A stretch of DNA of 64,000 nt from positions 1,603,531 through 1,667,530 of the forward strand of contig ML133432.1 of NCBI GenBank assembly GCA_003864495.1, in the 5' to 3' direction. Shown piece by piece: positions 4,662-64,000 of this stretch. The position numbers and the translations under genes were made by a program. The DNA comes from Nemopilema nomurai. Taxonomy: Eukaryota; Cnidaria; Scyphozoa; Rhizostomeae; Rhizostomatidae. Within the stretch, counting starts at the first letter, position 1, and every line of letters starts with the position of its first letter. The notes under the pieces were generated by a model. That model did no database searches, was not told where the DNA came from, and saw only the letters and a program-made list of their open reading frames with translations.

Positions 4662-5460
4662 ATTTGCAACACTACTGTTGTTTGGAACACTGATGTCTGG
4701 AACACTGTTGTTTGGAACTCTGTTGTTTAGAACATTGTTGATTGGAACACTGTTGTGAGGAACACTGTTGTTTGAAACACTGTTGTTTGGAACACTGCTG
4801 TCTGGAACACTGTTGTTTGGAACTCTGTTGTTCAAAACATTGTTGATTGGAACACTGTTGTTGGGAACACTGTTGTTTGAAACACTGTTGTTTAGAACAC
4901 TGTTGTTTGGAACACTGTTGTTTGAAACACTGTTGATTGGAACACTGCTGTTTGGAACTCTGTTGTTTAAAACATTGTTGATTGGAACACTGTTGTTGGG
5001 AACACTGTTGTCTGAAACACTGTTGTTTAGAACACTGTTGTTTGGAACACTGTTGTTTGAAACACTGCTGATTGGAACACTGCTGTTTGGAACACTGTTG
5101 TTTAGAACACTGTTGATTGGAACACTGCTGTTTGGAACACTGTTGTTGGGAACACTGTTGTTTGAAACACTGTTGTTTAGAACACTGTTGATTGGAACAC
5201 TGCTGTTTGGAACACTGTTGTTTAGAACACTGTTGATTGGAACACTGCTGTTTGGAACACTGTTGATTGGAACACTGCTGTCTGGAACACTGTTGTTTGG
5301 AACTCTGTTGTTTAAAACATTGTTGATTGGAACACTGTTGTTGGGAACACTGTTGTTTGAAACACTGTTGTTTAGAACACTGTTGTTTGGAACACTGTTG
5401 TTTGAAACACTGTTGATTGGAACACTGCTGTTTGGAACACTGTTGTCTGGAACACTGTTG
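4662..5460. repeat. 15-bp minisatellite, copy 1
   Basis: About 53 head-to-tail units of a 15-bp motif close to TTTGGAACACTGTTG. Variants at the first three positions (TTT, ATT, TTG, TCT) and at the G/A before AACACTG define several unit types, and these recur in blocks, which points to multi-unit duplication inside the array. Because 15 is a multiple of three, long frames stay open on both strands: plus reads a hydrophobic five-residue repeat around GTLLF, minus reads NNSVP. Neither shows a convincing start or bounded exon. Confidence 0.95.
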
Positions 5461-5760
5461 CGCTTTTACTTTTATTTCTTATTCTTATCATTATCATATC
5501 ATTTTTGCAGTTACTTAGTGTAAAAACCTTTCAAGATGAAGTTGTCAAAATTTTATGTCACAAACTTTTCTTTTTATTATATCATATTTCGGTGCTATAA
5601 GTTATCTGGCTACCATTAACTTCTCAGTCGTTGAAAGACCGCGGTATCTAAATGTAAACTTTCAAGACATCATGATGTGGATCTATAGAAAGTTTACGGA
5701 ATAGCCAGAAGCGATCGGTAAACCATGATCCATAAATTATATTAGAAATGTTTTACTTAC

Positions 5761-5812
5761 CGTTCTTGTTGTGACCACCTTTTGCGTTGGACTTTTTGCA
5801 AGTACGCTTTTT
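5761..5812 (-). CDS. Candidate 52-nt lysine-rich exon, copy 2
   Basis: Duplicate of the candidate exon at 4533-4584, carried by the second copy of the 1.2 kb duplication. The acceptor, donor and exon bases are unchanged. If the exon is real, the duplication made a tandem exon pair and so a possible choice between splice forms. The copy is too young for conservation to count as evidence of function. Confidence 0.25.
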
Positions 5813-5888
5813 CTGCAATACAGAATCTTTATTAAGGCTTCCGTTTATGAATGCCTTGCTATGCCAACCTTATCAGGTATGGTGTAGT

Positions 5889-6643
5889 TATTTGCAACAC
5901 TACTGTTGTTTGGAACACTGATGTCTGGAACACTGTTGTTTGGAACTCTGTTGTTTAGAACATTGTTGATTGGAACACTGTTGTGAGGAACACTGTTGTT
6001 TGAAACACTGTTGTTTGGAACACTGCTGTCTGGAACACTGTTGTTTGGAACTCTGTTGTTTAAAACATTGTTGATTGGAACACTGTTGTTGGGAACACTG
6101 TTGTTTGAAACACTGTTGTTTAGAACACTGTTGTTTGGAACTCTGTTGTTTAAAACATTGTTGATTGGAACACTGTTGTTGGGAACACTGTTGTCTGAAA
6201 CACTGTTGTTTAGAACACTGTTGTTTGGAACACTGTTGTTTGAAACACTGTTGATTGGAACACTGCTATTTGGAACACTGTTGTTTAGAACACTGTTGAT
6301 TGGAACACTGCTGTTTGGAACACTGTTGTTGGGAACACTGTTGTTTGAAACACTGTTGTTTAGAACACTGTTGATTGGAACACTGCTGTTTGGAACACTG
6401 TTGTTTAGAACACTATTGATTGGAACACTGCTGTTTGGAACACTGTTGATTGGAACACTGCTGTCTGGAACACTGTTGTTTGGAACTCTGTTGTTTAAAA
6501 CATTGTTGATTGGAACACTGTTGTTGGGAACACTGTTGTTTGAAACACTGTTGTTTAGAACACTGTTGTTTGGAACACTGTTGTTTGAAACACTGTTGAT
6601 TGGAACACTGCTGTTTGGAACACTGTTGTCTGGAACACTGTTG
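5889..6643. repeat. 15-bp minisatellite, copy 2
   Basis: Second array of the same 15-bp unit inside the downstream copy of the 1.2 kb duplication, about 50 units and three units shorter than copy 1. The order of unit variants matches copy 1 on both sides of the missing block, so the change was a single in-register deletion or insertion and not independent growth. Confidence 0.95.
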
Positions 6644-25575: not shown

Positions 25576-27404
25576 TTAATGTTTATTCTGCTCCTCCTGT
25601 TCCATAAGCAAGTTGAAAATTAAATTTTGAATCTGATTCTTTGCTATCAACTGATTTCTAGAAGAAAGTGATCTCATATCTGCAGCAATAAGTCTAGCAA
25701 AGAGATCAATACTATCTTCAGGGCAACTCCTGATCTCATCTTCAAGTTGTAACTCATTTTGAAGTTTTTCGTATTCGCAGCATAGTTCTTGTGAGTGTGT
25801 TGTAGTGTTGCTTTGGTCTTCTACAGGACATGCAGTCACAGCTGCAAACTGCACTGGTGATAATGTTTTTAATCGTCTTACTTTTATGTGTGGAATCAAC
25901 CAAGATAGGAACTTGTATTTTTCAAGATTTTTCCTTGCTATGCTTAAATCCATTTCTGAACCACCAAGGTACTGAAGCTTCTTAACAGCATTTTTGCTTT
26001 TGTTATAGCGCTTTTTCAAGTTTTCAAACAGCCTTTTCGCCTCCTCACCTTAAAATAAAAATTGAGAATGTTATTCATTTTAAAACATATCACTTGCAAA
26101 ACATGCTGAATTTCTTCCTGCTTCTAAAACCCTTTGTGGAAGTAGTAAGAAATTTAGCTGACACCAGGTAGAGTTTTACCATGAGAACAGCAGGCTTTGC
26201 AAATATTTTTCAAATTCTTCCTCTTTCTTCATTCAGTATTGAGGGTACTGTTGAATGCTGATCATAAATTTTTTTTTCATATGTACCTGGTAGAAATTGG
26301 ACATCAAACACGACACAGAAAACATTAAGGTCATAATCAAAATTAAATAATCCTATGCTGAAATCTATTAGAAGCCAGATCAGATTTACATTTACTGTAA
26401 TACTAATTATATAGATAATTCATTACAAGTGTTTAAAAGTTAGCTGAGATTGAATCTACTGCCTATTGACTCTCTGTTACTTACCCAATCAGAATAATGA
26501 ATAGAAAACCCAGAAAATGTTCAACTCAGTGAATTCAATCAAAGAAATGCTTGTGTCAGTTTAACAAATCATATTATCAGGAGCTACATTAAAGGGAACT
26601 CATTTTGTATATATTTTATTCCTAAAATTCCAAGAGGCATGCTGACTTTTTTGCTTTCTTTATTTTGTATGTGAGACTTTATTGTCACAAACAAGTCAAG
26701 ACATTTTTTCTCAAGACATGTTAAACAAAAATCTCTATATTTTCTCTACGAGAACAATTTCTCAATTTTGTTCTTTTGTTTTGCTAATAATTTATGCGTA
26801 TAATCTAATAGACGAAGCATATGTTGATCTTGATTTACTCATTTTCACCATTATCAGTTCTTTCGGCTGTGCAACCCGTAAATAAAACTGAAATAGCGCC
26901 GCCCCATACTCATGGTTCCTAGTAAAAAGTGACACTCGGTCCAGAAAAATGTCATCTTTATGGTACTTAATCGCTACTTCAATTCGTTTGCCCCTACCCC
27001 TTCGAGGCCTTGAATGGTACGAATACCTTGATTGTTGATACTGCAACGCAGTGTAAAAGATGTGATTGTGCGAAAACTGAATACCATTCCATCTTATTTT
27101 CAGTCACCCTCGCGTTTAAGCAAAAATATGAACTTCTATTTTGTACTGCAAAGAAGCCTAAAATTGAAACTGAGCTAGGATCTTTACCATCTTGGAGCTT
27201 CAGCTTTTCGGCCACGCTCAACCATGCATTGTCAACAACTGGTTTGCCGTGGAAACCCTTGTGTCTTTTATCATACAAGCATGGGTACTTTTTAACGGTC
27301 TCCGATAACTGCCTGTCAAAGTGTCTCTCAAATGTATCAGCTTGTTCCTCGCTCGGATCCATTTTGATCGAAAATTCCTCCAAGTGGCGTTCTACCCCGG
27401 ACAT
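25576..27404 (-). CDS. MADF-BESS domain protein
   Basis: Two minus-strand exons, 27404-27188 and 26048-25576, joined across a 1139-bp intron with a GTAAAG donor and TTTTATTTTAAG acceptor. The split glycine codon joins Asp72 to Gly73-Glu-Glu in frame, giving 229 residues. Residues 25-115 match the MADF (Adf-1/Myb-SANT-related) pattern: an aromatic-rich first helix with YPCLYD, then AWLSVAEKL, then the third helix LFENLKKRYN. The last 45 residues resemble a BESS interaction motif (DLFARLIAADM followed by IQNLIFNLL). Members of this family are sequence-specific DNA-binding transcription factors; some are also the accessory proteins of PIF/Harbinger transposons. I see no transposase nearby, so a host gene is more likely. 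Start: first ATG of the open frame, 15 residues before the MADF helix begins. AATAAA overlaps the stop region. A frame reading into the intron is not coding. Confidence 0.85.
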
Positions 27405-27826
27405 TAGCGCGCGTTAACAGGCGTTTACGGGGAAAACCTCGAAGCGCCACAGAACCGTACGTCAATAAAATCTATCTTGTGGTTTTGAACGAGAGATTTC
27501 ACAGCATGAAACAATCCTCTCTGGTCTGAACGCTTCAATATCTAATGTCGAATAGTCGAATTATCACAACAATCACGCCTGTACTTTGTTTTGAGGAGCT
27601 GCAACCTAATCGTTTAGCGCGATAGAATATCAAATGCGTTTGACAAAGACGTCATGACGACTGCAGGGGCCATATTATTGCCTCAAAGCAATTAGAACCA
27701 CAGATTCGCGATTATCTTGGCTTGCAGATACCCAAGGAAACATGGAAATACCTGTTCTAAATATAAGCAAAAACATGCGAAAATTCTAGATGTGGTAATC
27801 TGATAATAATCCATGCCTTCAAGGTA
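27405..27826. promoter_or_regulatory. Putative divergent promoter of the MADF gene
   Basis: The region just upstream of the MADF start is richer in CpG than its surroundings (GCGCGCGTTAACAGGCG, CCTCGAAGCGCC). About 420 bp away on the plus strand a short ATG-containing stretch (ATGCCTTCAAG) runs into a consensus GTAAGTG donor at 27827, so a second gene may start in the opposite direction. No downstream exon was found for it. Confidence 0.3.
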
Positions 27827-53273: not shown

Positions 53274-56200
53274 ATGGAAGTTTGCAGGAGTCGAAAGAGG
53301 TAACAAACTTTTCTTGGTCCTGTTATCTAGATCTGCAATTTTGATTGTGAGACTTCTAGTCTAGATTTTTTGTTCAAGTCCAAATACATCTCACGAGGTG
53401 CCTTTAACGTGGAAACTCAATTTAACATAGAATAATTATTCATTCAATCCTGTTTTCTGTCGCAAGACAAAAGCATCCCCTTTCTAGTATTGGTTATGGA
53501 AGTGCCATTCCTTAAAACTTTAACTCTATCATAGGGAAGGAAGTACGTGCAATTACGGTTATATGAAACGCGTCAAAAGTCAAAGTGATGATCAGGACTC
53601 TGAACCATACAGTGCTGGCAGTACAAATTTCTCATCACCGATAGACTCAGGATTTCCAGAAAACGGAGCTATCAGCAGCTTAAGTGGAGGTAAGCGCATC
53701 GACGTAAAATTGTCCTTAGTTGATCCTCACGTTCTTCTGAACATGCGTCTTGGAAGGACTATAATGGGTACTTTTGTGCTGGACTGTGGCGACCTTTAGC
53801 CACTGTGCCCGAATGTCCTGTCCAGCCCATTCTGCAACACGCAAACTACCCCTCCAAGATCTACTTATACCCTTTTTCCCTCCGTGCCACCCATTTCCCT
53901 GTATATTAGTCGTCCCGCCTTTTTCGTTTTGTCGCAACTCAATTCTTATTATAGACGATGTACCAGCAAGGCATCCTGAAAGCTGTTCGCAAGAAGAAAC
54001 AGCGCTACCAAGTAGGGTTAGGATTTTAGAAGAGAAGGTTGACTGGATTGGACGTGAACTGCAGCTCATACGAGAAATGCTGCAGTTCATTACGAAGGTG
54101 ATGCCCGCGGCAAATTCATCGTCCCGGCAAGTCGTCATGCCTGCCAGTGAAAGTAGGCCCAAGACGGTTATCCGCAACGGAAAGCGCTCGTCCACCTGCA
54201 ACAAGTCATCCCCCCGTCGACATTCGCTGCACACCAAGGGCTTCATCGATGCTCAATACTTGCTGCACTATGAACCTACGAAAACATCAAATCACTTGAA
54301 CATCTACCCGTCTACTGGCTCATCAGACGAGAAGAACTCGACCCTTGCCGAGAGCGAGAACAGGGAAACAAACTCGGACAGCGTCAGCAAGTCCTGTTCC
54401 GATGATTATGATTCCGATACCTACGCTGATAGGGAGCAAAATGGCAGCGGAAGTGGCGAAGGCGGTACAGATTCCAACCAAGCATCAAGAGAGGAATCCC
54501 CCAACAACGAGTTCACTGCGGAAGTGCCAATCATCAAATTCCAGGAGCACAACATCATCTCGGGACTCGATGTCATCTACCTGTGGGAGCATGGCACCGA
54601 TGAGATGCTACCCATACGGCTTTGGAACGAGTCGCAGCTGGAATCTGGAGGAGAGGTCATCAAGAAATGGCAGCAGGTTATCAACATTTTCAAGGTTGCT
54701 TGCAATGGCAGTTTGAAAGCGTTTGTGAACAAGTTCACGAATCAAGATGGGAAGTTGATGAGTGTGGCAGAAATAATAACAGCAAGCCAAGTAGAAACGA
54801 TGATGAGTGACGTGAGTGCTCCAACAAATACCCACTCGGATGGGAGCTCTATAAGCTCAAACAGCCTGAATGACTTAAAAATGGGACTTACCCATGACGC
54901 AACGTCGAATTTTTCATCAATGCCTAGCCAGCTGAAACAGAAGCTGATGCCTATCTACATTTTGCCACGCAAGATCAACGGCCAGAAGGTATCCGCTAAA
55001 GATGTGATACGCATCTGGGAAGACGGCTTCGGGAATATCCCGCCGGTGAAGACTTGGACTCCTAACCAGAAACTGAAGCAGCAGAGTAAAATATCCCGCT
55101 GGAAGAAGATTGTGGATATATTCAAAACAGAATGCAACTCCAACGTCAATCTGTTCCAGAAAAGGTATTCAAATGATTGTGGAGTTTTAATGCCAATCGC
55201 AGCGATTATCAGCAAATATGAACAGTCCCAGACGAACGACGGCCTTTTGAAGCAGTCCACGATTGCCAGCATGACCGCTCCAGTAATCAACGTCAAATCA
55301 GATGCAATGGGACCCTTGAATACACCAGTTGTCGACACCTTGGGTAGGAGCGGCGCAAACGACTACTGGAGATCATACAAGCGGCTAGATGAGCTCGGAA
55401 GAGAGTGGGATTTCAAGGAGGCCCAGAGCTGCAACGAGAGGAGGGCTTTTACTATCAGGCAGGTAGAGGACTGGCAGCGGAACAGTATCCAGTCAACAGA
55501 AGACGATAATAGGCCTGAACGCATGCAGAACCGGTTCCTTTCCATCCCTCGGTGCTTCACGGACCAGAGGAAAGGCACCATTGCCAGAGCAGTGCCACCA
55601 CGACATGTCACAAACATATCCAGCATTGACCAAAGAAACTTCCAGAGCGCCCCAATCAGTGGGATTAAGAAGATAGAGCCACAGCCAATACTGGACGAAA
55701 AGACAGCGCCACAAATCAACTCGATGCAGAAATTCAAACCGGTAGAGAATAGGAGCGCGAATGAGGCCAATAATGGCTCCACCCCGCCTTGTCTTCCACA
55801 AGTGAACCAGACTGGACAGAAGCAAAGAGATCCATCGCCGACATCAAGTGAGAGCGGGGAAAACAGCGATGCGTACAGCGGAAAGGACATCGATGTGACC
55901 GGGAGCGAAACCTCTGAGAGCTCGGCCCCATCGAAAAGCTACAGCCCAGTGCAAACCAAGTCATCAAAGTTCGTAGAGTCGAAAGAGCACGTGTACACGA
56001 CCGCCTCAAGTACACTGCAGCAAAACACATTGACGAATACATCCAGCTCTCTAACACAATTCGATCAGCCGACCCCAGCAGCGCCAACCAGACAGGCGGA
56101 TGAGAACTACACAGTGCTGCCCGACTCCGATGACCCGTTCGAAGTTTTGAAACTGTGGGAGCATGGTAGCGAAAAATGCCCGCCAATCAGATTTCTCACC

Positions 56201-56860
56201 ATGAACGATGACGTCATCAGGCATCCCCGGCTAATTGCGTGGAGAAAGTTCATCGACATTTTTCGTTTTCACTGCAATTCTGATAAGCAAGTGTTGATTG
56301 AGAAGTACTCGGATGACAAGAGGCGACTGTTGAAGGTGTCAGAAATTCTGCAAAGGTTTGAGTCCACCTTCATGCATCGACCTTTCGAAGCAGTAACAGG
56401 GACAGTGAAAAGCCCCGGTCCACTAACAACTGCAACCACGCCTACGCTGTACCAGAATGGCCATTTCCAGACTCAGATGGATGCCAAAAAGGCGTTCGCA
56501 ACCAATTCAGATATATATATTCTGCCAAGAAAGGTGAACGGTCACAAAGTCTCCGCTCATGATGTCATCCACATATGGCACCATGGGTTCAAGAATGTGC
56601 CGCCTGTTGCCTCCTGGTTGCCTCATCAGAAGGTTCGTCAGCAGAGCAAAATTTCTCGGTGGAAGAAAGTTGTGGAAATCTTCGAGGTCGATTGCAATGG
56701 CAACATGCAGTATTTTGATAAGAAATACTCAAACAAGACAGGTGATCTTTTGCCAATTGCGGCAATTATTTCGAAATACGAAGCAGAGAAGAATTCTCTG
56801 GAAGCAGAAAGTGGTATTGACATTAAGGTTGATCAAATCACAGAATCTTATGGACACTAA
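53274..56860 (+). CDS. Coiled-coil protein with four GCR1_C-like domains (A-B-A'-B')
   Basis: Three coding exons, 53274-53299, 53535-53689 and 53955-56860, with GTAACA and GTAAGC donors, TTTTTCAG, TCATAG and TTATAG acceptors, and matching phases (2, then 1), give 1028 residues. Residues 82-110 form a coiled coil with hydrophobics at 82, 85, 89, 92, 96, 99, 103, 106 and 110. An acidic Ser-rich linker (about 200-248) precedes domain A (252-339) and domain B (392-484). A second acidic Ser-rich linker (about 690-740) precedes A' (779-863) and B' (913-1004). Each domain has a hydrophobic-Trp-acidic-x-Gly motif, a Pro-Pro-hydrophobic or similar turn, a Trp-Lys/Arg-Lys helix ending in Cys-Asn, and a Lys-Tyr/Phe-Ser-like end. 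B and B' are about two thirds identical by eye. The layout recalls the fungal GCR1 C-terminal DNA-binding domain next to a leucine zipper, so a DNA-binding regulator is my proposal. The frame is open upstream of the ATG, so a further 5' exon is possible. Long antisense frames over exon 3 are shadows. Confidence 0.85.
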
Positions 56861-61864: not shown

Positions 61865-64000
61865 CAATTTTTCAGCGATTTTGGCCTTGTTCTAAGGAAA
61901 AACAGTAAGGCTATAGCATTGGAAAAAAAGCCGATTTTGGTAGAAATTTTGAAGGCCCTCTGCTTCGTATGTCTGGTAGAGTAGAGAAAGGGTAGCTTAT
62001 TGGTGCTATTTGTATTCTTCTGTCGATGTTTTTTTACCATGTTTTGAGCCACTCTGGCTTTGGCCTTTTTTGAGGGAAAACAGTAAGGCCATAGCCTTGA
62101 AAAAAGAGCCACTTTTGGTGGAAATTTTGAAGACCCTCTGCTTCGTGTGTCTGGTAGAATAGAGAAAGAGCAGCTTATTGGTGCGATTTGTATTCTTCTG
62201 TCTACGTTTTTTACCATGTTTTGAGCCACTTTGGTGTTGGTCCTTTTCAAGGGAAGAAAGTAAGGCTATAGCATTGGAAAAAAAGCCGATTTTGGTAGAA
62301 ATTTTGAAGATCCTCTGCTTCCTATGTCTGGTAGAGTAGAGAAAAGGCAGCTTATTGGTGCTATTTGTATTCTTCTGTCGACGTTTTTTACCACGTTTTG
62401 ATCCACTCTGGCTTTGGCCTTTTTCGGGGGAAAAATGTAAGGCTATAGCCTTGAAAAAAGAGCCGATTTTGGTTGAAATTTTGAAGACCTTCTACTTTGT
62501 GTGTCTGGTAGAGTAAAGAAAAGGCAGCTTATTGGTGCTATTTGTATTCTTCTGTCGACGTTTTTTGCCACGTTTTGAGCCACTTTGGTGTTGGTCTTTT
62601 TCAAGGGAAGAAAGTAAGGCTATAGCCTTAGAAAAACAGCCGATTTTGGTGGGATTCTTGAAGACCCTCTGCTTCCTATGTCTGGTAGAGTAGAGAAAGG
62701 GCAGCTTACTGGTGCTATTTGTATTTTTCTGTCGACGTTTTTTACCACATTTTGAGCCACTCTGGCTTTGGCCTTTTTCGGAGGAAAAATGTAAGGCTAT
62801 AGCCTTGAAAAAAGAGCCGATTTTGGTGGGATTCTTGAAGACCCTCTGCTTCCTATGTCTGGTAGAGTAGAGAAAAGGCAGCTTACTGGTGCTATTTGTA
62901 TGCTTCTGTCGATGTTTTTTACCACGTTTTGAGCCACTTTGGTGTTGGTCTTTCCAAGGGAAGAAAGTAAGGCTATAGCCTTAGAAAAACAGCCGATTTT
63001 GGTGGGATTCTTGAAGACCCTCTGCTTCCTATGTCTGGTAGAGTAGAGAAAGGGCAGCTTACTGGTGCTATTTGTATGCTTCTGTCGACGTTTTTTACCA
63101 CGTTTTGAGCCACTCTGGTTTTGGCCTTTTTCGGGGGAAAAATGTAAGGCTATAGCCTTTAAAAAAGAGCCGATTTTGGTTGAAATTTTGAAGACCTTCT
63201 ACTTTGTGTGTCTGGTAGAGTAGAGAAAGGGCAGCTTATGGTGCTATTTGTATTTTTCTGCCGACGTTTTTTGCCACGTTTTGAGCCACTTTGGTGTTGG
63301 TCTTTTTCAAGGGAAGAAAGTAAGGCTATAGCCTTAGAAAACCTGCCGATTTTGATGGGATTCTTGAAGACCCTCTGCTTCCTATGTCTGGTAGAGTAGA
63401 GAAAGGGCAGCCCACTGGTGCTATTTGTATTCTTCTGTCTACGTTTTTTGCCACCTTTTGAGCCACTCTAGCTTTGGCCTTTTTTGAGGGAAAAGATTAA
63501 GGTTCTAGCCTTGAAAAATGAGCCGATTTTGGTGGGATTCTTGAAGATCCTCTGCTTCCTATGTCTGGTAGAGTAGAGAAAGGGCAGCTTATTGTTGCGA
63601 TTTGTATTCTTCTGTCTACGTTTTTTACCACGTTTTGAGCCACTTTGGTGTTGGTCTTTTTCAAGGGAAGAAAGTAAGGCTATAGCCTTAGAAAAACAGC
63701 CGATTTTGGTGGGGTTCTTGAAGACCCTCTGCTTCCTATGTCTGGTAGAGTAGAGAAAGGGCAGCTTACTGGTGCTATTTGTATTCTTCTGTCGACGTTT
63801 TTTACCACGTTTTGAGCCACTCTGGTTTTTGCCTTTTTCGGGGGAAAAATGTAAGGCTATAGCCTTGAAAAAAGAGCCGAATTTGGTTGAAATTTTGAAG
63901 ACCTTCTACTTTGTGTGTCTGGTAGAGTAGAGAAAGGGCAGCTTATGGTGCTATTTGTATTCTTCTGCCGACGTTTTTTGCCATGTTTTGAGCCACTTTG
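61865..64000. repeat. 177-bp satellite with nested higher-order structure
   Basis: About twelve direct monomers, anchored on AAGGCTATAGCC at 61911, 62089, 62266, 62443, 62620, 62797, 62973, 63150, 63326, 63504, 63680 and 63857, run off the end of the window. Two monomer classes alternate: A (TCAAGGGAAGAAAGTAAGG... with GGTGTTGGTC) and B (TCGGGGGAAAAATGTAAGG... with CTTTGGCC). Class B alternates again between a form with TTCTACTTTGTG (62443, 63150, 63857) and one with CTCTGCTTCCTATG, giving a 707-bp four-monomer period. The first two or three monomers are the most diverged, as expected at an array edge. Minus-strand frames span monomers because 177 is divisible by three; these are not genes. 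Confidence 0.97.

What the first reader, a model, noticed from the sequence alone, without database searches (positions are those of the whole stretch)
53274..56860. A metazoan protein with four GCR1_C-like domains in A-B-A'-B' order
The sequence shows two pairs of related domains, each pair preceded by an acidic Ser-rich linker, so a linker-A-B block was duplicated inside the gene. B and B' are about two thirds identical by eye, while A and A' have drifted further and A differs from B in its N-terminal part. The closest fold family I can name is the fungal GCR1 C-terminal DNA-binding domain (PF12550), which is not normally associated with animals. Four such domains plus a coiled coil in one chain would be an unusual DNA-binding architecture.
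Basis: partly seen in the sequence, partly recalled or inferred. Interest (0 to 1): 0.85.

Follow-up and report, generated by a model that had tools for sequence, protein, structure and literature searches.

The report
Cnidarian protein with ordered repeat domains
A gene from a likely jellyfish encodes a protein with four copies of a small domain that matches no catalogued family above its cut-off; most related proteins found, cnidarian wherever the source is named, carry four, five or seven copies in a group-specific order of subtypes, and the protein likely works in the nucleus as a DNA-binding regulator, which is untested.

Summary
A three-exon gene (53274-56860, +; 1,028 aa) carries four related domains of about 78 aa in A-B-A'-B' order, each pair after an acidic, Ser-rich linker. 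Its proposed identity is not established: no window domain reaches PF12550 (GCR1_C) even at E<=10; 6 of 45 scanned sequences, all hydrozoan-type, hit it below cut-off (best 15.9 bits, cut-off 23); profile-profile comparison with GCR1_C covers 19-25 columns at 0.2-1.8% probability. AlphaFold2 gives B' a confident four-helix fold (pLDDT 93.6) without a PDB or viral match. The gene is the only match in its 213 Mb genome. All seven relatives listed with an organism name are cnidarian. Arrays follow group-specific orders of subtypes: 36 S-F-S-F-S, 21 d-S-d-S (window included), 12 S-F-T-d-T-S-F, 7 others, of 76. A basic long-helix motif is kept in B and B' and in nearly all anthozoan positions, and eroded in A and A'. 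Best reading: a cnidarian-restricted, likely nuclear DNA-binding regulator built from a domain without a family model; function is inferred only.

The parts
53274..53299 (+). exon 1 (ATG; start of MEVCRSRKR...)
   Evidence: Splice donor GT at 53300; N-terminus matches P0002
53535..53689 (+). exon 2 (rest of the basic, bipartite-NLS-like N-terminus and a Ser-rich stretch)
   Evidence: AG/GT borders; N-terminal region 88% identical to P0002
53955..56860 (+). exon 3: coiled-coil-like helix, linkers, all four domains, stop codon
   Evidence: AG acceptor, frame open to the stop at 56860
54002..54106 (+). coiled-coil-like helix (by eye)
   Evidence: 35 of 35 residues identical to P0002, 43% and 57% to P0003 and P0007; no coiled-coil predictor was run
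54314..54463 (+). acidic Ser-rich linker before A
   Evidence: 13 D/E, 4 K/R, 12 S in 50 residues
54557..54790 (+). domain A (type d: basic long-helix motif eroded)
   Evidence: repeat HMM 88 bits; motif and typing
54989..55222 (+). domain B (type S)
   Evidence: repeat HMM 116 bits; motif and typing
55814..55993 (+). acidic Ser-rich linker before A'
   Evidence: up to 9 D/E and 15 S per 50 residues
56132..56362 (+). domain A' (type d)
   Evidence: repeat HMM 81 bits; motif and typing
56549..56782 (+). domain B' (type S)
   Evidence: repeat HMM 112 bits; AlphaFold2 pLDDT 93.6, helices at residues 20-29, 42-65, 70-76, 87-100 of window 56498-56800

Best explanation
The gene encodes a 1,028-residue protein with four copies of a predicted four-helix domain that no Pfam model matches, arranged as eroded-canonical-eroded-canonical, and it likely acts as a coiled-coil-assembled nuclear regulator that would contact DNA through the two canonical domains. 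Shown: the four domains and their order, the gene model by comparison with a relative, a single match in the genome, relatives named as hydrozoan, hexacoral and octocoral genera, group-specific orders of subtypes, and conservation of a basic motif in the long helix of B and B'. Predicted: the fold of B' (modelled) and, by homology, of the others. Inferred: nuclear location from a basic bipartite-like N-terminus; self-assembly through the N-terminal helix; DNA contact by the conserved basic long helix of B and B'; A and A', which have largely lost that motif, serving as spacers or protein-contact modules. Flexible acidic Ser-rich linkers would let the domains sit on separated sites or act as activation or phosphorylation regions.
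For: Domains and gene model. Conservation is concentrated in the domains (to P0003: A 76, B 86, A' 64, B' 86% against 31-42% in linkers). By array position, in the 22 four-domain proteins the five K/R positions of the motif QK-x5-K-x2-RW-K-K are kept in 95-100% of B and B' but 5-45% of A and 32-77% of A'; mean net charge is +4.3 and +4.4 for B and B', -1.2 and -1.0 for A and A'. Four of the five K/R positions are at 100% in all five positions of the 37 five-domain proteins and in six of seven positions of the 13 seven-domain proteins. Group-specific orders across 76 proteins. Bipartite NLS-like pattern near the N-terminus in P0002, P0016, P0049, P0027 (4 of 8 tried). Confident helical fold of B'. 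One Xenia relative carries an N-terminal THAP domain (45 bits), a DNA-binding zinc finger by general knowledge.
Against: No DNA-binding family matches above its cut-off inside the repeats in any protein scanned one by one. No PDB or viral fold match. Several anthozoan positions that keep the motif are net acidic (mean -5.0 for the seventh position of seven, -1.5 for the fifth of five). The NLS-like pattern was not found in 3 of 8 proteins tried (P0064, P0013, P0062) and lies at another place in one (P0059). THAP is in 1 of 12 octocoral-type proteins scanned, and that record is marked low quality. No binding, localisation or expression data.
Confidence: 0.45

Rival explanations
1. The domains are protein-interaction modules in a scaffold or adaptor, nuclear or cytoplasmic, and touch no nucleic acid; the ordered subtypes bind different partners.
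For: Group-specific order of subtypes with long linkers suits a scaffold; several motif-bearing anthozoan positions are net acidic; A and A' have largely lost the basic motif; no DNA-binding family match above cut-off inside the repeats.
Against: Basic motif kept in B, B' and nearly all anthozoan positions; basic bipartite N-terminus in 4 of 8 tried.
Confidence: 0.33
2. The domains are true but remote GCR1_C homologues, descended from a Crypton-type or other fungal-like source.
For: PF12550 appears below cut-off in 6 of 45 scanned sequences, all on B- or B'-type domains and starting at profile position 11 each time (best 15.9 bits, E 0.016). HMM-HMM local alignment pairs helix 1 and the W-G-P loop in register, score 15.3, above 149 of 149 block-shuffled controls (best control 15.2) for the full set. 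A GCR1_C profile gives real cnidarian domains a mean of 0.5 bits against -1.0 for reversed ones, and only 3 of 1499 shuffles reach its best real score of 6.8. The first three helices have comparable lengths in the models (9-10/8/22 against 10/3/24). Tandem GCR1_C proteins with 3-5 copies exist.
Against: hhalign probability 0.2-1.8%, 19-25 of about 100 columns; with the tandem subset 7 of 149 controls reach the score; in global mode 91 and 148 of 149 controls do. Scores of the two HMMs across families stay at 6-7 bits, and in the other direction (cnidarian profile on GCR1_C domains) reversed sequences score higher (7.0 against 6.2). An unrelated yeast family (LRS4) scores better on the same domains (E 0.00053). 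The six hits are near relatives, not independent. C-terminal helices differ (14/6-7 against 7/14).
Confidence: 0.15
3. The repeats are a remnant of another transposase or mobile-element DNA-binding module domesticated before the cnidarian radiation.
For: THAP and MADF-type modules occur in mobile-element proteins by general knowledge; THAP in one relative.
Against: Single match in the genome, no nuclease, recombinase or NDC10_II family in the exon at E<=10, no relative confirmed in viral or prokaryotic contigs.
Confidence: 0.07

Closest known systems
GCR1_C (PF12550), the domain shared by CryptonF transposons and yeast Gcr1, Hot1, Msn1 and Cbf2 (PMC3212892, passages)
   Same: Helical domain of about 80 aa; W-x-x-G-x-x-x-P-like pattern in helix 1 and the following loop; can occur in tandem (3-5 copies in P0077-P0086 and P0164)
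   Different: Below cut-off in all 45 scanned; HMM-HMM match limited to 19-25 columns; C-terminal helices differ in the models; no NDC10_II or recombinase partner in the exon
THAP domain proteins (PF05485)
   Same: One Xenia relative carries a THAP domain upstream of the repeats
   Different: In the own genome, of the 150 candidates scored out of 545, the only one on the window's contig (C66:2616518) lies outside the window; no THAP in 11 of 12 octocoral-type relatives scanned
DUF3492 (PF11997)
   Same: Above its cut-off of 23.3 in P0049 (26.6 bits) and P0052 (24.6), over the fifth repeat
   Different: Covers about 65 of 268 profile positions; P0051, P0065 and P0071 lie below cut-off; no hit in the window protein; judged chance
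LRS4 monopolin subunit (PF10422)
   Same: Weak hits on the long helix in 10 of 45 (best E 0.00053)
   Different: Best 20.4 bits against a cut-off of 24.2, about 35 of 211 positions

Membership tests
GCR1_C (PF12550) | Score over the curated 23-bit cut-off | tested here: not met
   No hit at E<=10 for the window exon and the four domains; best of 45 scanned is 15.9 bits
GCR1_C (PF12550) | Significant profile-profile match over the domain | tested here: not met
   hhalign of 84 cnidarian against 88 GCR1_C domains and two subsets: probability 0.2-1.8%, 19-25 columns
GCR1_C (PF12550) | Same fold | tested here: inconclusive
   Models compared by helix order and length only: 10/3/24/7/14 against 9-10/8/22/14/6-7; coordinates were not on hand to superpose
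GCR1_C (PF12550) | DNA binding | not testable with these tools
   Needs a binding assay
CryptonF-derived proteins | Tyrosine recombinase or NDC10_II region in the chain | tested here: not met
   No Pfam family at E<=10 in the 967-aa exon; by the passages read, some derived yeast genes keep GCR1_C alone, so this is not a strict criterion
Cnidarian repeat family described here | At least two copies of the domain and an order seen in relatives | tested here: met
   Window protein has 4 copies, order d-S-d-S, as in 20 other proteins
DUF3492 (PF11997) | Score over cut-off in the window protein | tested here: not met
   No hit in the window protein or its domains at E<=10

The most novel reading that the evidence does not exclude
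A new DNA-binding domain with a new fold, confined to Cnidaria and present since before the split of corals and jellyfish, strung in arrays whose subtype order is a fixed, lineage-specific reading code for composite DNA sites; jellyfish and hydroids read with two modules of four, stony corals and anemones with five.
Probability: 0.27. Interest if true: 0.82.

Novelty: new variant of a known kind. Interest (0 to 1): 0.58.

Why it matters
If the array binds DNA, Cnidaria own a regulator class that no search here found outside them, old enough (hydrozoan, hexacoral and octocoral genera are among the named relatives) to predate the split of the main lineages. The group-specific order of domain subtypes gives a testable system for how tandem domains divide labour, and the domain deserves a family model of its own. 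If it does not bind DNA, it is still a conserved protein that annotation leaves as 'uncharacterized'.

Full report
What is there. The window gene runs 53274-56860 on the + strand. With exons 53274-53299, 53535-53689 and 53955-56860 it reads 1,028 residues with one terminal stop and GT/AG at both introns. The N-terminus follows P0002, the closest relative found (81%). The first joining attempt used wrong junctions and was discarded. Four domains lie in exon 3; all six pairwise alignments score 112-345 while the best shuffle of 1000 per pair scored 54. An iterated repeat profile finds A, B, A', B' at 88, 116, 81 and 112 bits. Acidic Ser-rich stretches stand before A and before A'. That the host is a jellyfish is inferred from similarity; no tool named it.

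How far the duplication story goes. B and B' are 64% identical over 95 residues. A is no closer to A' (23/65) than to B (25/75) or B' (28/80). In a tree of 96 domains from 20 proteins, 32 of 93 inner branches are well supported and several long branches meet. Neither A+A' nor B+B' came out as one clade; holding them together is not rejected (AU p 0.238 and 0.23). One block duplication is possible; the tree cannot show it.

Relatives. A search with the exon found 63 proteins at E<=10 among 6472 candidates, the weakest at 2.8e-42. A second search with an alignment of 26 proteins found 60, all at 1.1e-137 or better, with only the 7996 best word-sharing candidates scored. Together with the window protein I hold 76. 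Seven records bear an organism name and all seven are cnidarian: Dendronephthya, Porites, Nematostella, Xenia, Hydra, Clytia, Oculina. The rest are unnamed; I assign them to lineages by copy number and similarity, which is inference. No relative was confirmed in viral contigs or prokaryotic genomes. The own genome (213 Mb, 226 contigs) holds one match at E<=1, this gene (four candidates scored). Restriction to Cnidaria is therefore supported, not proved: sponges, ctenophores and placozoans were not searched separately.

Ordered arrays. Over all 76 proteins: 36 read SFSFS, 21 dSdS (window included), 12 SFTdTSF, and one each SFTSF (the Xenia record), dSS, SS, SF, SFTddSF, SFSd and SFS. The types were set after looking at the sequences, and the proteins are related, so these are not independent trials; but within each copy-number group the order is nearly always the same. 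A Trp in helix 3 goes with type F (32 and 36 of 37 in positions 2 and 4 of five-domain proteins against 6, 1 and 1 of 37 in positions 1, 3 and 5).

Basic motif. Counted by array position in 374 domain instances, the K/R positions of QK-x5-K-x2-RW-K-K are kept at 95-100% in B and B' of the 22 four-domain proteins (the 21 d-S-d-S ones plus P0075, which reads SFSd). In A they stand at 5-45% and in A' at 32-77%. In the 37 five-domain proteins, and in six of seven positions of the 13 seven-domain ones, four of the five K/R positions are at 100%; the fifth is mostly missing from positions 3 and 5 of the five-domain and from position 6 of the seven-domain proteins. The fourth position of seven has lost three of the five. 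The S, F, T and d types are themselves defined on part of this motif, so motif loss in 'd' is true by definition; the count by position is the independent statement. Mean net charge is +4.3/+4.4 for B/B' and -1.2/-1.0 for A/A', but it ranges from -5.0 to +2.9 over anthozoan positions, which speaks against a simple 'all domains grip DNA' reading.

Is it GCR1_C? The exon and each single domain give no PF12550 hit even at E<=10. Of 45 sequences in alignment A2, 6 show PF12550 below its cut-off (P0055, P0056, P0057, P0060, P0061, P0062; E 0.016 to 2.6), always on B- or B'-type domains and starting at profile position 11; no hit appeared in the 30 proteins (E<=10). I then retrieved PF12550 proteins with a query of seven typed variants: 301 at E<=1 among 7993 scored candidates, the best 120 listed and used. 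I compared 84 cnidarian with 88 GCR1_C domains, thinned at 75% identity from 374 and 155 instances. hhalign gives 1.6% probability over 25 columns in helix 1 and the loop, 1.3% over 19 columns with the tandem proteins alone and 0.2% over 24 with the single-domain ones; on trimmed alignments 1.8% and 1.4%. The score of 15.3 beat all 149 block-shuffled controls for the full set, by 0.1. For the tandem subset 7 of 149 controls reached the real score of 14.8, and in global mode 91 and 148 of 149 did. A GCR1_C profile scores the cnidarian domains at 6.8 bits at best (mean 0.5; reversed at most 1.3, mean -1.0; 3 of 1499 shuffles reach 6.8), the tandem GCR1_C profile at 6.7 (2 of 1463 shuffles), and the cnidarian profile scores GCR1_C domains at 6.2 at best while reversed ones reach 7.0. 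So there is a faint excess in one direction, none in the other. The AlphaFold2 model of the tandem GCR1_C protein P0084 has helices of 9-10, 8, 22, 14 and 6-7 residues per repeat (the last two may lie outside the Pfam domain); the B' model has 10, 3, 24, 7 and 14. Similar front, different rear; the two models could not be superposed here. Membership is not shown.

Other family hits. DUF3492 passes its cut-off of 23.3 in P0049 (26.6) and P0052 (24.6) over about a quarter of the profile, on the last repeat; P0051, P0065 and P0071 lie below. LRS4 shows in 10 of 45 below cut-off. I judge both chance helix matches; a reader who trusts cut-offs alone should know that DUF3492 passes twice. For four A2 members (P0002, P0026, P0033, P0036) I saw only the pooled table, which shows 25 of 63 families. 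Xenia P0053 has a THAP domain (45 bits); 11 other octocoral-type proteins scanned do not, and the record is marked low quality. In the own genome the THAP search scored 150 of 545 candidates; the one listed hit on contig C66 (2616518) lies outside the window.

Most likely function. A basic bipartite-like N-terminus, a conserved helix that looks like a coiled coil, acidic Ser-rich linkers and basic helical domains together resemble a transcription regulator. I put a DNA-binding nuclear role at 0.45, a protein scaffold at 0.33, remote GCR1_C kinship at 0.15 and another domesticated mobile-element module at 0.07; the last two speak of origin and could be true together with the first. All steps from sequence to function are inference; nothing here measures binding, location or expression.

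Known or new. CryptonF elements and the yeast genes derived from them carry GCR1_C, and Crypton elements are listed for Nematostella (PMC3212892, 12 passages read). Searches for GCR1_C with Crypton, for the GCR1_C domain, for GCR1 with Cnidaria, for gene identifiers of five of the relatives' records and for cnidarian-specific or orphan DNA-binding proteins listed no paper on this family. I rate it a new variant of a known kind: a tandem-domain, probably nuclear regulator made of a domain that lacks a catalogue entry.

Noticed in passing
P0077-P0086 and P0164: Eleven of the 120 listed PF12550 proteins hold 3-5 tandem GCR1_C domains; of the five printed, four begin with a hydrophobic, signal-peptide-like stretch and the fifth (P0080) has one further in, odd for a DNA-binding domain. 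Sources unnamed.
   Followed up: partly
[not shown]
   Followed up: no
window 25576-27413 (-): Two reading frames with a MADF_DNA_bdg match (31.7 bits, cut-off 22) and a BESS match just under its cut-off (20.6 against 21): probably one MADF-BESS type gene.
   Followed up: partly
window 4674-6643: Tandem array of a 15-bp unit, about 130 copies, that reads as long open frames on both strands.
   Followed up: no
window 61879-64000: Satellite-like array of a 177-bp (or 354-bp) unit, 12 (6) copies, running to the window's end.
   Followed up: no
G000:C70:3822717-3823148 (L001): One DUF3504 match (64.1 bits, cut-off 29.7) in the own genome, the domesticated Crypton recombinase domain of animals.
   Followed up: no
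window 55362-55490, in the linker between B and A': A stretch around REWDF, ERRAFTIRQVE and WQRNSIQ is, by eye, strongly conserved between P0001, P0002 and P0003 inside an otherwise drifting linker: a possible further functional element.
   Followed up: no
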